In this document: positions 5,919-14,462 of the stretch, in pieces
Position numbering within the stretch: position 1 is the stretch's first letter
How the letters are laid out: each line of letters opens with the position of its first letter
DNA from: a virus
IMG/VR virus record: IMGVR_UViG_3300031758_000318
Span: 1-32,570 of that record
DNA: 32,570 bases
Strand: one strand, 5' to 3'
Program-made: the position numbers and the translations under genes
Notes under the pieces: generated by a model
Seen by the model: the letters and a program-made list of their open reading frames with translations, nothing else
The model's database searches: none
Told to the model about the DNA's origin: nothing

Positions 5919-6334
5919 TGAATGATTTATATAGAATAGTACATCTGTATAGACAATTTCCTAAATACAATGAATACACTTATGAAGATTTAGTTAAAAT
6001 GATAACTCCCTCTTTAAACTTAGATCAATACCAAATTCATAGAGTTGGCACAGAAGATGTTGGATATACAAACTGGGCTTTTTTAAGTGATACAGTTGAA
6101 CAAAGATTTAAACTTACTGGAAGATTAAAAGCTAATGAATGGAATTGTGGAGACAATGTTTGGCACATTGAAACAATAGCTAAAAGTCATTTAAGAGAAA
6201 TTATGAAATGGACTAAAGAATATTTTAGAACAAAATTACAAATTAACCAACCAATTAAATGGTTAAGAATTAAAGATCACACAATTTATAGAAGATCAGA
6301 AAAATATAAAAGAGAATTTCATATACACGCATGA
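5918..6334 (+). CDS. HlyC-like toxin-activating lysine acyltransferase family protein
   Basis: A 138-residue protein starting at the ATG that overlaps the previous stop. The alternative GTG at 5903 lies inside the previous gene and is less likely. Residues 53-57 (WAFLS) and 75-82 (WNCGDNVW) match the two signature blocks of HlyC-type acyltransferases (W-A-x-L-S and W-x-x-G-D-x-x-W). Asp79 would be the catalytic Asp and His9 a candidate for the N-terminal catalytic His. HlyC enzymes move fatty acyl chains from acyl carrier protein to lysines of RTX toxins. No RTX toxin is encoded here. The gene lies where lambda-like phages keep the gpK peptidase, between the gpL-slot and J-like genes, so a tail-tip protein is the likeliest substrate (inference). 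Confidence 0.75.
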   Translation: MNDLYRIVHLYRQFPKYNEYTYEDLVKMITPSLNLDQYQIHRVGTEDVGYTNWAFLSDTVEQRFKLTGRLKANEWNCGDNVWHIETIAKSHLREIMKWTKEYFRTKLQINQPIKWLRIKDHTIYRRSEKYKREFHIHA

Positions 6335-9279
6335 TAGATTTATTTAACTCAATATCTACTTTAGCTAATAGGATTTTTGATAATCTTATTAATGGAACTG
6401 ACATTCCACTTTATACTTCTGGTGCTGACCCATTTACTGCTGCGATTATTCAATTCGTAATAGTAACTGCAATTAGTTATGTAATTGCACCTAAACCTAA
6501 AGCACCAAGATTTAATGCACAAGATGAAATTAAAGGTGTTACTGTAAGTAAAGATTCTAACAACAATCCTATTCCAGTTGTCTATGGTAAAAGACAAGTT
6601 GGTTTAACAAGAGTATTTGTAGAATCTTCAGGAACAGATAATCAATATCTTTATGTAGCTGGAGTATTGTGTGAAGGTGGTGGGGCAGGAATTACAGCAA
6701 TAGATGAAGTTTATGTAGATGATAAACTAGTAACATTTGATGGTGCTTTAACTGATGGAACAGTAAGAGGTGTATCTAGTGCAGATACTAATTTCTATAA
6801 AGGTGGAGAATCTTTAATATCTATTCAAGGATTTTTTGGATTAGACAATCAATCAGCTTCTTCTTTGCTTGACGAAACAACTAACTGGACTTCAGATCAT
6901 AAACTATCTGGTCTTGCTTATGTTGCTTTAAGGTTTAAATGGAATCAAGATGCTTTTAATGGCTTACCAGAAGTTAGAGTAACTGTAAGAGGTAAGAAAA
7001 TATATGACCCTAGATTAGATTCTACTAAAGGTGGTTCTGGTTCTCATAGACAAGATGACCCTACAACTTGGGCTTATTCTGCTAACTCATCTTTAGTTCT
7101 TTTAGATTATCTAAGAAACAGCAGATATGGAAAAGGATTGCCTAATGATGCTTTTGAAACTAATTACGATTCATTTAAGACTTCTGCAAATACCTGCGAT
7201 ACACAAGTAACTCCTTATACTGGTGCAGTAAGCGATATAAACCTATTTGAAACAAATGCAGTTATAGATAGTGAGAAAAAAGTATTAGAGAATGTAAGAG
7301 AACTCTTAGTGCCTATGAGAGCAATCTTTAATTACACACAAGGTAAATACAAAGTTATTATTGAAGGTACTGGTTCATCACAATTACTATTAACAAAAGA
7401 TAATGTTGTAAGCGAAGTTAAATTACAAGGTGAAAGCAAATCAGAAAAGTATAACCGAGTTATTGGTACTTTCACAAACCCAGAAAAAGATTATCAATCA
7501 GATACAGTTTCATATCCACCATTTGATGATTCAGGATTAGCAGTAGAAGATCAACACGCAACAATGTTAAGTGATGATAACAATACTTTATTAGAGAGAA
7601 GTTTTGATATGTTACAAGTAACTTCTCCATATCAAGCAGAAGAAATTTGCGAGAACATATTAAAGAGATCAAGAAACAATTTAAAAGCAGAAGTAACAGT
7701 AACTTCAGAAGCACTTAATTTATCTATTGGAGATATAGTTACAGCTACATACGATACAGCAGGATTTAGTGCTAAACCATTTAGAGTAATGTCTTTAGCT
7801 ATCAATTCAGATTCAACAGTAACCTTAGGATTAGAAGAACATCAAGATAACTTTTATACTTGGGAAGAAAAAGGCGAAGCACCAACAATAGCTGATACTG
7901 TACTTCCAAATCCATTTTCTGTATCTGCACCAGCTTCAGTTACTTTAGATGACCAACTAATAGAGTATTCAGATGGAGTTGTTATTACTGCTTTAGATGT
8001 AACGATTGGTGCATCACCTGATAACTTCGTAGATTACTACCAAGTAGAATATAAACTAAGCACAGAATCTACTTACCAAGTATCTGGTCAAGTTAGAGGA
8101 TTAAATCATAGAATACTAAACGTAGTAGATGGATTAACTTACAATGTAAGAGTAAAAGCATTTAACACATTAGGAGTACAATCAACTTATACTTCTGCAA
8201 CAAGAACTATTATTGGTGGAATAGCACCACCAGCAGATGTTGAAGATTTTTCTTGTAATATTATTGGAAGTGATGCTCATTTATCTTGGACACAAATACC
8301 TGATTTAGATTTAGCATATTATCAAATAAGATTTTCTACATTAACAAGTGGTGCATCTTGGGCTAACTCAGTTTCTTTAGTTGAAAAAGTTGCAAGACCA
8401 GCTACTTCAGTTACAGTTCCAGCAAGAGTAGGTTCTTATTTAATTAAAGCAGTAGATAAAAATGGTAACTTCTCATCTAATGAAGCTGTTATAGCTACTA
8501 ACATTTCAACAGTTGGAAACTTTAATGCTGTTGCAACACAAACTGAATCTCCTACATTTTCAGGAACTAAAACAAATGTCATTGTATCAGATGGAACATT
8601 AAGATTAGATTCATCAGAACTATTTGATTCTGCAACTGGAAACTTTGATTCTGGTACTGGATTTTTTGATTCTGGTTTAACTGCTACTGATTTATATGCT
8701 ACTGGAAATTATTTATTTTCAAATCCAATAGATATTGGTGCTGTTTATACTTCAAGAGTAACTGCTTCTATTACACAAACTTCAGATAACTTAGATGATT
8801 TATTTGACGCAAGAACTGGCGATTTTGATGACGCATCTTCTAACTTTGATGGAGATACTCCTGCTAATTGTAATGCTCATATTGAGATTGCTTTATCTAA
8901 TGACAATATAACTTATACTTCATTTAGAAATTTTACAGTCGGAGATTACACAGCAAGATATTATAAATTTAGAGTAGTATTAATATCATTTGATTTAAGT
9001 TCTACTCCAGTTATTAGTGCTTTATCTGTTTCTATTGATATGCCAGATAGAATATTTAGTGGAAATGATATTGTTTCAGGAACTGGAACTTATACAGTAA
9101 CATTTACAAATCCATTTTATTCTGCTAACTATGCTGTTGGAATTACTGCACAAGGTTTAGCTACTGGTGATTACTACTTACTGACAAATAAAACTATAAA
9201 TGGTTTTAATGTAGCTTTTAAAAATAGTAGTGGAACTGGTGTAAGTAAAACATTTGACTACCTTGCAAAAGGTTATTGA
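6331..9279 (+). CDS. J-like tail tip / host specificity protein with fibronectin-III-like repeats
   Basis: 982 residues, the largest gene. A hydrophobic segment at about 35-53 (PFTAAIIQFVIVTAISYVI) followed by PKPKAPRF and then NPIPVVYGKRQVG is the standard start of gpJ-type tip proteins. About 60-520 forms the hub-like portion, including GLPEVRVTVRGKKIYDPR. About 535-740 looks like two fibronectin-III modules (DNFVDYYQVEYKLS, LTYNVRVKAFNTLGVQS, then PDLDLAYYQIRFST). Residues near 760-845 carry two FD-rich blocks (LFDSATGNFDSGTG and LFDARTGDFDD). The C-terminus is a small beta domain. It contacts the receptor and closes the tail tip. It overlaps the acyltransferase gene by four bases. Confidence 0.85.
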   Translation: MIDLFNSISTLANRIFDNLINGTDIPLYTSGADPFTAAIIQFVIVTAISYVIAPKPKAPRFNAQDEIKGVTVSKDSNNNPIPVVYGKRQVGLTRVFVESSGTDNQYLYVAGVLCEGGGAGITAIDEVYVDDKLVTFDGALTDGTVRGVSSADTNFYKGGESLISIQGFFGLDNQSASSLLDETTNWTSDHKLSGLAYVALRFKWNQDAFNGLPEVRVTVRGKKIYDPRLDSTKGGSGSHRQDDPTTWAYSANSSLVLLDYLRNSRYGKGLPNDAFETNYDSFKTSANTCDTQVTPYTGAVSDINLFETNAVIDSEKKVLENVRELLVPMRAIFNYTQGKYKVIIEGTGSSQLLLTKDNVVSEVKLQGESKSEKYNRVIGTFTNPEKDYQSDTVSYPPFDDSGLAVEDQHATMLSDDNNTLLERSFDMLQVTSPYQAEEICENILKRSRNNLKAEVTVTSEALNLSIGDIVTATYDTAGFSAKPFRVMSLAINSDSTVTLGLEEHQDNFYTWEEKGEAPTIADTVLPNPFSVSAPASVTLDDQLIEYSDGVVITALDVTIGASPDNFVDYYQVEYKLSTESTYQVSGQVRGLNHRILNVVDGLTYNVRVKAFNTLGVQSTYTSATRTIIGGIAPPADVEDFSCNIIGSDAHLSWTQIPDLDLAYYQIRFSTLTSGASWANSVSLVEKVARPATSVTVPARVGSYLIKAVDKNGNFSSNEAVIATNISTVGNFNAVATQTESPTFSGTKTNVIVSDGTLRLDSSELFDSATGNFDSGTGFFDSGLTATDLYATGNYLFSNPIDIGAVYTSRVTASITQTSDNLDDLFDARTGDFDDASSNFDGDTPANCNAHIEIALSNDNITYTSFRNFTVGDYTARYYKFRVVLISFDLSSTPVISALSVSIDMPDRIFSGNDIVSGTGTYTVTFTNPFYSANYAVGITAQGLATGDYYLLTNKTINGFNVAFKNSSGTGVSKTFDYLAKGY

Positions 9280-9298
9280 TTAATATATTAGATAGATT

Positions 9299-10495
9299 AT
9301 GGCACAACACGATATGAATATTGCGAATCAGGGTTTCCCTGCATTTCGTTCAGATTTAAACAATGCACTATCAGCAATTCAAACAACTCATTCAGGAACA
9401 TCAAGACCAACTGGTGCTGTTGCTGGTCAAATTTGGCTTGATACGACATCAGCAACTTCTCCTACTTTAAAATATTATGATGGTGCTGATGACATTTCTT
9501 TAGCTACTATTGACCATAGTGCTAACACAGTAAATTGGTTAGACTCAAATGTTTCTGTCACTGGTTTAACAACTACTGCTACTGGAACTGTTATAACTTT
9601 ATCTGATACTGCAAATACATCTACTGTTAATTTAATTATAGATAATCAAAAAGAAGTTCGCTTTCGTGAAACGACTGCAAATGGAACAAATTATATCGGA
9701 TTAAAAGCACCAGCTAGTGTTAGTGCTGATTTAACTTTTACTTTACCTGCAACTGATGGAACTAATGGACAAGCACTTGTAACTAATGGTTCAGGAGTTT
9801 TATCATTTACAACTATTTCAACTTCACTAACAACTCCTTTAACAGTCGTTGGTGATGCTACTGCTGGTTCTGAAATTAGATTGCCTGAAGATACTGACAA
9901 TGGTTCAAACTATGTTGCGATAAAAGCACCAAATACTTTAGCATCAAATTTAACTTTAACCCTTCCAAGTGCAGATGGAACTTCAGGTCAAGTGCTTCAA
10001 ACAAATGGAAGTGGGGTTTTAAGCTTTGCAGGTGTTTCGGCGAGTGCTGGACAAGTTATTCAAGTTGTTACTGCTACTGATTCTACAAGAAGAACAACAA
10101 CATCAACTTCATTTGTTACAGCTTCAAATACTTTAAGTGCAACTATAACTCCTTCTTCAACTTTAAATAAAATATTTGTTGTCATGCACTCTACTTGCAG
10201 AGTAGCAGTAGGTGATGCTGGTTATGATGGAAGACACAATATATTTACAATTTATAGAGGTGCAACAAATTTAGGAGATAGCACTCATGGTTTGTCATCA
10301 AATATGAGTTTTGGAAACAGAATTTTTCCTCTATCTATGACTATTTTAGATTCACCAAATACAACTTCAGCAACTACTTATGAAGTTAGAATGAGAACTA
10401 ATTTAAGTGATAATACAATGGCAATAAACGATAATGGGGCAAATGATTCTGCTAGTTGTAAAGCTAGTATTACACTTTTTGAAATTAAAGGATAA
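9299..10495 (+). CDS. Tail fibre protein (constant stem plus variable tip A)
   Basis: 398 residues. The N-terminus (NQGFPAFRSDLNNALSAIQ then GAVAGQIWLDTT) is the usual attachment module of marine phage fibres. Two tandem repeats of about 75 residues follow (VRFRETTANGTNY...VTNGSGVLSF and IRLPEDTDNGSNY...QTNGSGVLSF). After the second LQTNGSGVLSF, at about residue 240, a distinct tip domain begins and runs to the end. The tip probably binds the receptor. The left 26-bp inverted repeat (9995-10020) encodes that LQTNGSGVLSF junction, and an alternative tip lies inverted at 11605-11090. A fibre chaperone starts 2 bases after the stop. Confidence 0.85.
   Translation: MAQHDMNIANQGFPAFRSDLNNALSAIQTTHSGTSRPTGAVAGQIWLDTTSATSPTLKYYDGADDISLATIDHSANTVNWLDSNVSVTGLTTTATGTVITLSDTANTSTVNLIIDNQKEVRFRETTANGTNYIGLKAPASVSADLTFTLPATDGTNGQALVTNGSGVLSFTTISTSLTTPLTVVGDATAGSEIRLPEDTDNGSNYVAIKAPNTLASNLTLTLPSADGTSGQVLQTNGSGVLSFAGVSASAGQVIQVVTATDSTRRTTTSTSFVTASNTLSATITPSSTLNKIFVVMHSTCRVAVGDAGYDGRHNIFTIYRGATNLGDSTHGLSSNMSFGNRIFPLSMTILDSPNTTSATTYEVRMRTNLSDNTMAINDNGANDSASCKASITLFEIKG
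9995..10020 (+). repeat. Left 26-bp inverted repeat of the fibre segment
   Basis: Begins CTTCAAACAAATGG and ends GTGGGGTTTT; it is the exact reverse complement of 11571-11596. It lies in frame inside the fibre gene at the stem/tip junction (LQTNGSGVL). Sequences on both sides of the match differ between the two copies. Confidence 0.95.
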
Positions 10496-10497
10496 TT

Positions 10498-10788
10498 ATG
10501 AAAATAGATATTTGTACTGCAATACTATCAATTAAAAAAGGTTCGGAAGTAAGTGTATCAGATGATGATATTAATACTCTTGAATGGCATGATGGAAACC
10601 CAACAAACATTACTAATAAACAAATATTAGATAAGCAAAAAGAATTACAAGCATTAGAAGATGTTTATGAAAATAGACGCAAGGAATATGGTAATTGGCA
10701 ATCTCAATTAGATGAGATTTATCATAGTGGTTTAGATGCGTGGAAAGATAGAATTTCTGCGATTAAATTAAAGTACCCTAAAGAATAG
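10498..10788 (+). CDS. Tail fibre assembly chaperone A
   Basis: A 96-residue protein two bases after the fibre gene. The second half, VYENRRKEYGNWQSQLDEIYHSGLDAWKDRISAIKLKYPKE, is the recurring ending of small proteins encoded after marine phage fibres (YGSW-x-x-QLDxIYH...W-K-x-x-I...K-x-x-YPK), usually regarded as fibre assembly helpers. The middle is a charged helix. It lies inside the inverted-repeat segment and its 3' end overlaps chaperone B, on the other strand, by 11 bases. The chaperone role is inferred from position and family habit. Confidence 0.65.
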   Translation: MKIDICTAILSIKKGSEVSVSDDDINTLEWHDGNPTNITNKQILDKQKELQALEDVYENRRKEYGNWQSQLDEIYHSGLDAWKDRISAIKLKYPKE

Positions 10789-11050
10789 ACTTAACTTCTT
10801 CTTCAGTTAAACCAAGTGCTTTTAACTTAGCAATAGCTGATTCTTTTCTAGCTTTTTCTTGTGCTATTCTGTTTTGTTCTGCGATTTTAAATTGTTCTTG
10901 TTTTGCCAAAAACTCATCTGAATAATTAAAAGAACCATCTGGTTTTCTAATCATGTCAGCAAATACATTATCATCTACTTCAACATATCCTTCTACATAA
11001 GGATAAGATATTTGAACTACTTTGTTATCTATTATTAATGCGTATTTCAT
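10778..11050 (-). CDS. Tail fibre assembly chaperone B (silent orientation)
   Basis: 90 residues: MKYALIIDNKVVQISYPY opens a small beta domain, followed by a long charged helix ending EKARKESAIAKLKALGLTEEEVKSIL. This domain plan is common in proteins encoded directly after phage fibre genes. It reads in the same direction as fibre tip B (11605-11090), 39 bases after it, just as chaperone A follows tip A. It is not visibly related to chaperone A, suggesting each tip has its own partner. In the present orientation it points against the + strand structural operon, so it is probably little expressed. Confidence 0.6.
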   Translation of the reverse strand: MKYALIIDNKVVQISYPYVEGYVEVDDNVFADMIRKPDGSFNYSDEFLAKQEQFKIAEQNRIAQEKARKESAIAKLKALGLTEEEVKSIL

Positions 11051-11089
11051 ATTAAGCTACATTTATGTTATTTTTTATTATTAAGTATT

Positions 11090-11605
11090 TCATGCTACTT
11101 TCCATATTTGACAATCTGAATAAACTTCTGTTCCATAAGTAGTGTGATGACCCAAACCAGTATTATTAATACCAGTTCCACAACGATATTGTAATTCAAA
11201 AGTTTTTTGTGCAGATATTGTAAATCTTCCAATTATCCATTGTTCTGACCATGATGTGTCAGCAACATACATATAAGTACCAGTTCCAATTATAGTATCT
11301 GAACTATCTGTTATGTTTCTTAATTTTACTTTTACATAATCAATATTGTTATAAAAAGGCATTCTTGCATTAATATAATAAGTCCCACTAGGTAATGTTA
11401 TTTGATTTGATGATAATGAAGCACCAGAAATTTCATTAGTTAAAGAAGTATTTAAAACTCTAGTTTGAAAAGAACCAGCAACACTAGTACCACCATGACT
11501 ACCACTAGCTTTTTCATCTCTTACATGAAATAAAGCAGATTCAAATTTTCCGCCTGAACTAACGAATGACAAAACCCCACTTCCATTTGTTTGAAGGAAA
11601 AACAT
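11090..11605 (-). CDS. Alternative tail fibre tip B, inverted, without its own stem or start signals
   Basis: The frame reads LQTNGSGVLSFVSSGGKFESALFHVRDEKASGSHGG... and ends CQIWKVA. The opening is the same stem junction as in the fibre gene; the rest is a complete tip domain of a widespread marine phage type (LTNEISGASL...QITLPSGTYYI...LRNITDSSDT...ISAQKTFELQY). The only ATG (11605) is three codons before the shared junction, with no ribosome site, and no stem domain precedes it, so it looks like a silent C-terminal cassette rather than an independent gene. A TTG at 11623 could extend it slightly. Inversion would fuse it in frame to the stem. Confidence 0.75.
   Translation of the reverse strand: MFFLQTNGSGVLSFVSSGGKFESALFHVRDEKASGSHGGTSVAGSFQTRVLNTSLTNEISGASLSSNQITLPSGTYYINARMPFYNNIDYVKVKLRNITDSSDTIIGTGTYMYVADTSWSEQWIIGRFTISAQKTFELQYRCGTGINNTGLGHHTTYGTEVYSDCQIWKVA
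11571..11596 (-). repeat. Right 26-bp inverted repeat of the fibre segment
   Basis: Exact reverse complement of 9995-10020. On the minus strand it encodes the LQTNGSGVL junction at the start of tip B. Just outside it is a short palindrome (AGATTT, TGC, AAATCT at 11613-11627) that is absent on the left side. Confidence 0.95.
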
Positions 11606-14042: not shown

Positions 14043-14462
14043 ATGATTCCAGCTATAACTGCTCTTGCACCTATTCTTAATAAAGTTTTTGGAGTTATAG
14101 ACAAATCTATTTCTGACAAAGACTTAGCATTAAAATTAAAGAACGATTTAAATATGCAGTTACTTCAATCTGGTACTGAAGAACTAAAAGCTACTGCAAG
14201 AATAGTTGAAGCTGAAGCTAAATCAAATTGGTTTGTAGCATCTTGGAGACCATTACTAATGTATGTATTGATTGCTATTCTAATTTGGAATTTTATTATT
14301 AGTCCAATAATCTTAGTCTTATTTAAAATAAATGCACAAGTACTTTTACCTACTGATGTTTGGACATTATTACAAATAGGTTTGGGTGGATATGTGGTTG
14401 GTCGTTCAGGAGAATCTATCGCAAGAACTTTAGCAAATAGACCAGCACAAAAAGATGAATAA
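14043..14462 (+). CDS. Holin of the 3TM / gene-transfer-agent type
   Basis: 139 residues. A soluble helical N-terminus (KLKNDLNMQLLQ...RIVEAEAKSN) is followed by SWRPLLMYVLIAILIWNFIISPIILVLF (68-95) and VWTLLQIGLGGYVVGRSGESIA (106-127). The S-W-R-P-L-L-M and L-Q-I-G-L-G-G-Y-V-V-G-R-S blocks are the signature of the family called holin of 3TMs, for gene-transfer release. It would permeabilise the inner membrane and release the M15 lysin. It starts one base after the previous stop, with no clear ribosome site, so it is probably translationally coupled. Confidence 0.88.
   Translation: MIPAITALAPILNKVFGVIDKSISDKDLALKLKNDLNMQLLQSGTEELKATARIVEAEAKSNWFVASWRPLLMYVLIAILIWNFIISPIILVLFKINAQVLLPTDVWTLLQIGLGGYVVGRSGESIARTLANRPAQKDE

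What the first reader, a model, noticed from the sequence alone, without database searches (positions are those of the whole stretch)
9995..11596. Mu-like invertible tail-fibre cassette with two tips and two chaperones
A perfect 26-bp inverted repeat bounds 1602 bp. The left repeat is inside the fibre gene at the LQTNGSGVL junction; the right repeat encodes the same junction at the start of an inverted, stemless second fibre tip. Each tip is followed by its own chaperone, and the chaperones meet tail to tail at the centre. Inversion would exchange the receptor-binding end in frame. The left copy uses the same codons as the right one across all 26 bases, while the other LVTNGSGVLSF repeat in the same gene uses different codons, so chance or protein-level constraint explains this poorly. 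Switchable fibre segments are established for Mu and P1; I know of none established for AT-rich marine siphophages.
Basis: partly seen in the sequence, partly recalled or inferred. Interest (0 to 1): 0.92.

Follow-up and report, generated by a model that had tools for sequence, protein, structure and literature searches.

The report
Flipping receptor tips in pelagiphage-like virus
This virus carries two alternative host-binding tips for its tail fibre in a piece of DNA that relatives carry in either direction, so it can probably switch which tip it displays; some relatives have a second switch wrapped round the first, and none examined carries a recognisable flipping enzyme.

Summary
A perfect 26-bp inverted repeat (9995-10020 / 11571-11596) bounds a 1602-bp cassette: fibre stem, tip A, gene A, then inverted gene B and stemless tip B. 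An IMG/VR scan for the 26-mer found 31 other contigs. Twenty-four, plus the window, have two inverted copies about 1.4-1.65 kb apart. All 25 cassettes carry one alpha-slot and one beta-slot tip; all 50 tips are open in frame with the junction. The joined tip is alpha in 10 and beta in 11 distinct cassettes. L018 is the window with exactly this segment inverted; a tree needs at least 6 orientation changes. Eleven relatives carry a second, outer 30-bp repeat pair enclosing the first, adding a third tip, also seen both ways (6:5). Tip A is predicted to be a TNF/lectin-like domain. Inversion is well supported by comparison but was not observed in action. 'Mu-like' holds for the logic only: no serine or tyrosine recombinase was found in 46 related records, including the ~97% complete window, and no gene outside the cassette tracks with it. 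Flipping is probably by homologous exchange between the repeats or a recombinase acting in trans. The literature held has no report of this in pelagiphages.

The parts
6331..9279 (+). central tail protein (J-like), upstream anchor for comparisons
   Evidence: Pfam Phage-tail_3 1e-7; PHROG 'tail fiber protein' 7e-81 and 'central tail fiber J' 4e-75
9299..9994 (+). constant stem (N-terminal part) of the tail-fibre gene
   Evidence: open frame 9299-10495; collinear with relatives up to the repeat
9785..9811 (+). first junction-motif copy LVTNGSGVL, spelled differently and unpaired here; in relatives this position carries the outer repeat (site 2)
9995..10020 (+). left copy of the 26-bp inverted repeat (site 1), encodes LQTNGSGV(L)
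10021..10495 (+). tip A (alpha slot), currently joined to the stem; predicted TNF/C1q-like jelly roll similar to sugar-binding lectins
   Evidence: AlphaFold pLDDT 85.7; Foldseek PDB hits BC2L-C and PLTL lectins, lambda central fibre
10498..10788 (+). small gene following tip A (putative fibre-assembly chaperone A)
   Evidence: PHROG 9114, unknown function, 2e-23; role inferred from position
10778..11050 (-). small gene following tip B (putative fibre-assembly chaperone B)
   Evidence: open frame; relatives of the full gene found almost only in such cassettes
10778..10867 (.). central element: C-terminal codons of gene B, almost invariant in DNA (enhancer-like element or recombination anchor; undecided)
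   Evidence: synonymous differences 1.7% versus 27.7% in the J gene
11090..11570 (-). tip B (beta slot), silent: no stem of its own; reading frame intact
   Evidence: PHROG 24210 tail fiber protein 2e-36; intact frame
11571..11596 (-). right copy of the 26-bp inverted repeat (site 1)

Best explanation
9995-11596 is an invertible tail-fibre cassette. One orientation joins the constant stem in frame to tip A and its small partner gene; the other would join it to tip B and its partner. Strand exchange at the two identical 26-bp repeats, which encode the stem-tip junction LQTNGSGVL, flips the segment and swaps the receptor-binding tip, so a virus population can present either tip. Close relatives have a nested version: an outer 30-bp repeat pair in the earlier stem motif encloses the inner pair, giving three alternative tips. 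Shown by comparison: repeats, in-frame junctions, intact silent tips, and both orientations in relatives with break points at the repeats. Inferred: that inversion is ongoing within one strain, that the tips differ in receptor, and that the small genes are chaperones. The phage appears not to encode its own invertase. The exchange is made either by general recombination between the repeats (about 0.5) or by a site-specific recombinase supplied in trans or not yet recognised (about 0.4).
For: Exact 26-mer in 31 other viral contigs; 24 of these plus the window hold two inverted copies about 1.4-1.65 kb apart. Inner orientation 10 alpha to 11 beta among distinct cassettes; every cassette has one alpha-slot and one beta-slot tip. 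L018 matches the window collinearly on both flanks (90% and 85%) and in inverted orientation across 9995-11596. The J-gene tree needs at least 6 inner (at least 4 forced by supported branches) and 4 outer orientation changes; L028 and L030/L032 have almost identical J genes but opposite inner and outer states. Outer site 2: the same stem flank continues into linker or third tip, and the right flank has the other; 6 against 5 of 11. All 50 tips are open in frame from the site. The beta tip of L006 (joined) and L028 (not joined) is the same protein. The motif has dozens of spellings in relatives without a pair but one in the paired clade found by protein queries, apart from the co-varying L309. 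Tip A has a lectin-like fold.
Against: No same-strain contig in the opposite orientation: all four near-identical pairs agree, so switching may be slow or historic. No reads were available. No recombinase of a known family was found. The flip window/L018 is between phages about 10-15% apart, so replacement of modules by horizontal exchange could mimic some of the pattern.
Confidence: 0.85

Rival explanations
1. Inversion by a site-specific recombinase (host Xer-type, host or co-infecting element, or an unrecognised phage protein) that reads the 26-bp site.
For: Site 1 is invariant in all 18 cassettes sampled without using the site (0 of 8 codons vary, against 9 of the 20 codons just upstream), and codons directly outside vary. 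The window and most relatives share the same 26-bp frame. Sampled SAR11 genomes carry one tyrosine recombinase of Xer size in 8 of 10.
Against: No serine or tyrosine recombinase in 46 related virus records. No gene outside the cassette tracks with it. Serine recombinases in only 3 of 118 SAR11-family genomes. Site 1 is not palindromic and not dix-like. L309 and other phages use different repeats.
Confidence: 0.35
2. Homologous (RecA- or exonuclease/annealing-dependent) recombination between the short identical repeats, with no dedicated invertase.
For: In each phage the two copies are identical over 26-70 bp while spelling and length differ between lineages; variants occur in both copies at once (L309 GGT, L019 GGA). 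The phage encodes a lambda-type exonuclease (PHROG 298, 2e-27). No invertase found.
Against: 26 bp is near the lower limit for homologous recombination (general knowledge). The common 26-bp frame and its invariance in the main clade are more than identity between copies requires, unless module exchange between phages keeps it uniform.
Confidence: 0.45
3. Not a switch: the inverted second tip is a relic of module exchange between phages at shared junction sequences, and orientation changes only over evolutionary time by import.
For: Modules are clearly mosaic: at least 2 alpha-slot and 6 beta-slot tip families in varied combinations. Same-strain pairs share orientation.
Against: Silent tips are always intact (50 of 50 tips). 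Orientations are near 1:1 at both site pairs. Imports would sometimes give two alpha-slot or two beta-slot tips, which is never seen in 25 cassettes. L028 and L030 differ in both states with almost identical J genes.
Confidence: 0.12
4. Assembly or amplification artefact.
For: One contig alone could be chimeric.
Against: The same architecture in 25 contigs from many assemblies with different tips, and another window-strain contig (L005) 99.99% identical over 13 kb.
Confidence: 0.01

Closest known systems
Mu G segment / P1 C segment (Gin/Cin tail-fibre inversion)
   Same: Constant fibre stem, two alternative tips each with an assembly gene, between inverted repeats lying inside the fibre gene; inversion swaps the tip in frame (general knowledge).
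   Different: No serine invertase gene beside the segment or in the ~97% genome; repeat is asymmetric and not dix-like for site 1; nested second segment in relatives; host group differs.
p15B Min shufflon
   Same: More than two alternative fibre ends selected by DNA inversion.
   Different: Min uses a serine-family recombinase (PMC6109161); here two differently spelled site pairs are nested and no recombinase is found.
Bifidobacterium prophage Rin shufflon and the second bifidophage inverted locus
   Same: Receptor-binding protein ends exchanged by inversion; the second bifidophage locus likewise has no flanking recombinase and was suggested to be acted on in trans (PMC6109161).
   Different: Rin has a phage tyrosine recombinase and 11-bp sites; the second locus is at an 8-bp sequence; actinobacterial prophages, unrelated genes.
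Pelagibacter phages HTVC202P, HTVC112P, HTVC026P, HTVC111P
   Same: Closest cultured phages: similar gene order, J protein 43-57% and terminase 54-56% identical.
   Different: No long inverted repeat in the 6-7 kb after J and no second inverted tip.

Membership tests
Invertible tail-fibre cassette (functional class) | Perfect inverted repeats inside the fibre reading frame bounding two alternative ends | tested here: met
Invertible tail-fibre cassette (functional class) | Both orientations exist with break points at the repeats | tested here: met
   Between relatives; not within one strain
Invertible tail-fibre cassette (functional class) | Inversion occurs in one population or culture | not testable with these tools
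   No reads; four same-strain contig pairs agree in orientation
Mu/P1 Gin-Cin (Din serine invertase) system | Serine invertase gene near the segment | tested here: not met
   PF00239 absent from 46 records including the window
Mu/P1 Gin-Cin (Din serine invertase) system | 26-bp near-palindromic dix crossover sites | tested here: not met
   Site 1: 6/26 self-complementary positions and chance-level match to hix/gix; outer site 2 matches hixL at 16 positions (1/500 shuffles) but is not palindromic; reference sites from memory
Mu/P1 Gin-Cin (Din serine invertase) system | Recombinational enhancer | tested here: inconclusive
   A DNA-conserved element lies at the cassette centre, function unknown
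Rin-type tyrosine-recombinase shufflon | Phage tyrosine recombinase | tested here: not met
   PF00589 absent from 46 records including the window
Host Xer/dif exploitation | Site resembles host dif | tested here: inconclusive
   No site-1-like sequence (up to 3 mismatches) in 10 SAR11 genomes; the SAR11 dif was not determined

The most novel reading that the evidence does not exclude
A nested, two-level (three-tip) tail-fibre switch, spread among unrelated pelagiphage-type viruses, that runs without a phage-encoded invertase: driven by a hijacked host recombinase, a recombinase of unknown family, or homology alone at codon-embedded repeats.
Probability: 0.55. Interest if true: 0.85.

Novelty: new variant of a known kind. 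Interest (0 to 1): 0.74.

Why it matters
SAR11 bacteria and their phages are among the most abundant organisms and viruses in natural waters, and how phages keep up with host surface change is an open question. A heritable two- or three-way receptor switch, visible in metagenome assemblies by its repeats, makes host-range switching in these phages directly measurable from existing reads. The apparent lack of an invertase raises a clear mechanistic question.

Tried and rejected
Recombinase in the window: Pfam, PHROGs and NCBIfam scans and six-frame PF00239/PF00589 searches found none. A gene tracking with the cassette: none beyond tip B and the two small genes; the near-complete cassette-free relative G018 has nearly all other window genes. 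Site 1 in cellular genomes: no exact match in GTDB contigs, none with up to 3 mismatches in 10 SAR11 genomes. Cultured phages with the cassette: none; gene B has no match in INPHARED, and the best tip A relatives (HTVC106P, Lederberg EXVC029P) lie in ordinary collinear gene order. The tip B fold model is low confidence (pLDDT 58) and was not used. First assumption that the 26-mer is strictly invariant: ascertainment-biased, retested with J-, gene-B- and tip-based sampling; L309, L123, L131 and L315 show other spellings. Two family searches failed on a bad handle and one on wrong coordinates.

Full report
Observation. The repeat is real, perfect and at the stated positions. Markov simulations of the window never exceed 18 bp. 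The left copy is in frame inside the fibre gene 9299-10495; the right copy opens an inverted, stemless tip B. The two small genes after the tips meet tail to tail with an 11-nt overlap.

The virus. The window is a 32,570-bp virus record, GC 31%. Its J-like protein and terminase are closest among cultured phages to Pelagibacter phages HTVC202P, 112P, 026P and 111P, with similar gene order. By that order the window lacks only about 0.8 kb (scaffold gene and first capsid codons), so it is roughly 97% complete (inference). A Pelagibacterales host is likely but not shown.

Relatives in both orientations. A scan of IMG/VR for the exact 26-mer returned 31 other contigs. Twenty-four of these plus the window have a complete inverted pair with 1.34-1.62 kb between the copies. 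The sequence just inside the repeat is of two kinds, TTTT-AAG/GAG (alpha slot) and TTTT-GTC (beta slot), and each of the 25 cassettes has one of each. After merging near-identical strains, the tip joined to the stem or linker is alpha in 10 and beta in 11. L018 aligns to the window collinearly up to 10020 and from 11571 on, and inverted across 9995-11596. On a tree of the J-gene end the orientation changes at least 6 times, no more clustered than shuffled labels; well-supported branches alone force 4.

Nested switch. Eleven relatives carry a second perfect repeat, GTTCTTAAAGACAGATGGTGCTGGGAATTT (GGA for GGG in both copies of L019), in the earlier stem motif (FLKTDGAGNL), about 2.7 kb apart and enclosing the first pair. 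The same stem flank runs into the linker (AAG or GAG, then TTTTGAT in most) in some and into a third tip (GTC.TTCAGT) in others, and the right flank always has the other one. Six are in one state and five in the other; the tree needs at least 4 changes. In the second state the alpha and beta tips are both silent. The third tip has its own small partner gene (L011 and L030). L028 and L030 have almost identical J genes and stems (98% over 600 nt) but opposite inner and outer states.

Silent tips are maintained. All 50 alpha and beta tips are open from the site codon to a stop at 125-199 aa. Tips diversify fast (dN/dS from about 0.55 to 1.1 in five diverged pairs compared), and at least 2 alpha-slot and 6 beta-slot families occur in varied combinations. 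Tip A is predicted with good confidence (pLDDT 85.7). It matches TNF-like sugar-binding lectins (BC2L-C, PLTL), Pgp3 and, weakly, the lambda central fibre, and by sequence the C-terminus of a 658-aa chain, orf22 in 9efk. That fits a receptor-binding tip; binding itself is not shown.

Repeat sequence. In relatives sampled by J, gene-B or tip proteins rather than by the site, the paired clade spells the motif one way, with variation in codons on both sides. Relatives without a pair spell it in dozens of ways. There are exceptions: L309, same clade, carries CAAGTCCTTCAAACAAATGGAAGTGGTGT in both copies. Unrelated phages L123 (42 bp) and L131/L315 (61-70 bp; L131 has three tips and three sites) have analogous cassettes with other spellings. 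So copies agree within a phage and differ between lineages.

Machinery. PF00239 and PF00589 are absent from all 46 distinct virus records searched. Many of those are fragments, but the window is nearly whole. No gene outside the cassette separates cassette carriers from the near-complete cassette-free relative G018. Sampled SAR11-family genomes rarely have serine recombinases (3 of 118) but usually one tyrosine recombinase of Xer size (8 of 10). Site 1 is not palindromic and does not resemble hix/gix; site 2 shows a weak resemblance to hixL that may be chance. I put general recombination between the repeats at about 0.5 and a site-specific recombinase in trans or unrecognised at about 0.4, given that it is a switch. 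The two rival rows in this report carry slightly lower figures because they are scored as complete explanations.

Centre of the cassette. The last ~22-28 codons of gene B are almost free of synonymous change between phages (1.7% against 27.7% in J, lowest J window 13.9% in the common set, where gene B has 4.5%). This could be an enhancer-like DNA element or the second anchor for exchange of tip modules between phages.

Limits. No reads were available, and four same-strain contig pairs share orientation, so the rate is unknown and may be low. Searches of the open-access literature held here found no report of invertible fibres in pelagiphages; subscription papers were not covered.

Verdict. A real, recurrently inverted tail-fibre tip cassette: a new variant of the Mu/P1/Min/Rin kind in function, not a member of the Gin/Cin family by the features tested.

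Noticed in passing
window 10778-10867 and 19 related cassettes: C-terminal codons of gene B are nearly invariant at DNA level, wobble positions included, although N-terminal parts differ completely between some phages.
   Followed up: partly
L006, L009, L010, L011, L013, L017, L019, L020, L028, L030, L031: Second, outer 30-31 bp inverted repeat pair nested around the first; third tip with its own small gene.
   Followed up: yes
L131:5046, 5884, 7357: Three repeat copies (two direct, one inverted, 61-67 bp) and three tip modules in an unrelated phage; direct copies could also delete a module.
   Followed up: partly
L051 and L089, downstream of J: A different perfect inverted repeat (57 and 47 bp, CTACTGATTTTGAGTTCTTACC...) about 1.07 kb apart in fibre genes of close relatives without site 1.
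   Followed up: no
L014, L025: Relatives with the stem-side 26-mer but only one tip module left (locked forms); in L025 the missing stretch does not end at the repeats.
   Followed up: partly
all 25 site-1 cassettes: Every cassette pairs one alpha-slot (Ser AGY) with one beta-slot (Ser TCN) tip although several tip families use each slot; why slots never mix is unexplained.
   Followed up: no
window 14043-14462: Gene-transfer-agent type 3-TM holin family (PF11351, 2e-16).
   Followed up: no
   Followed up: no
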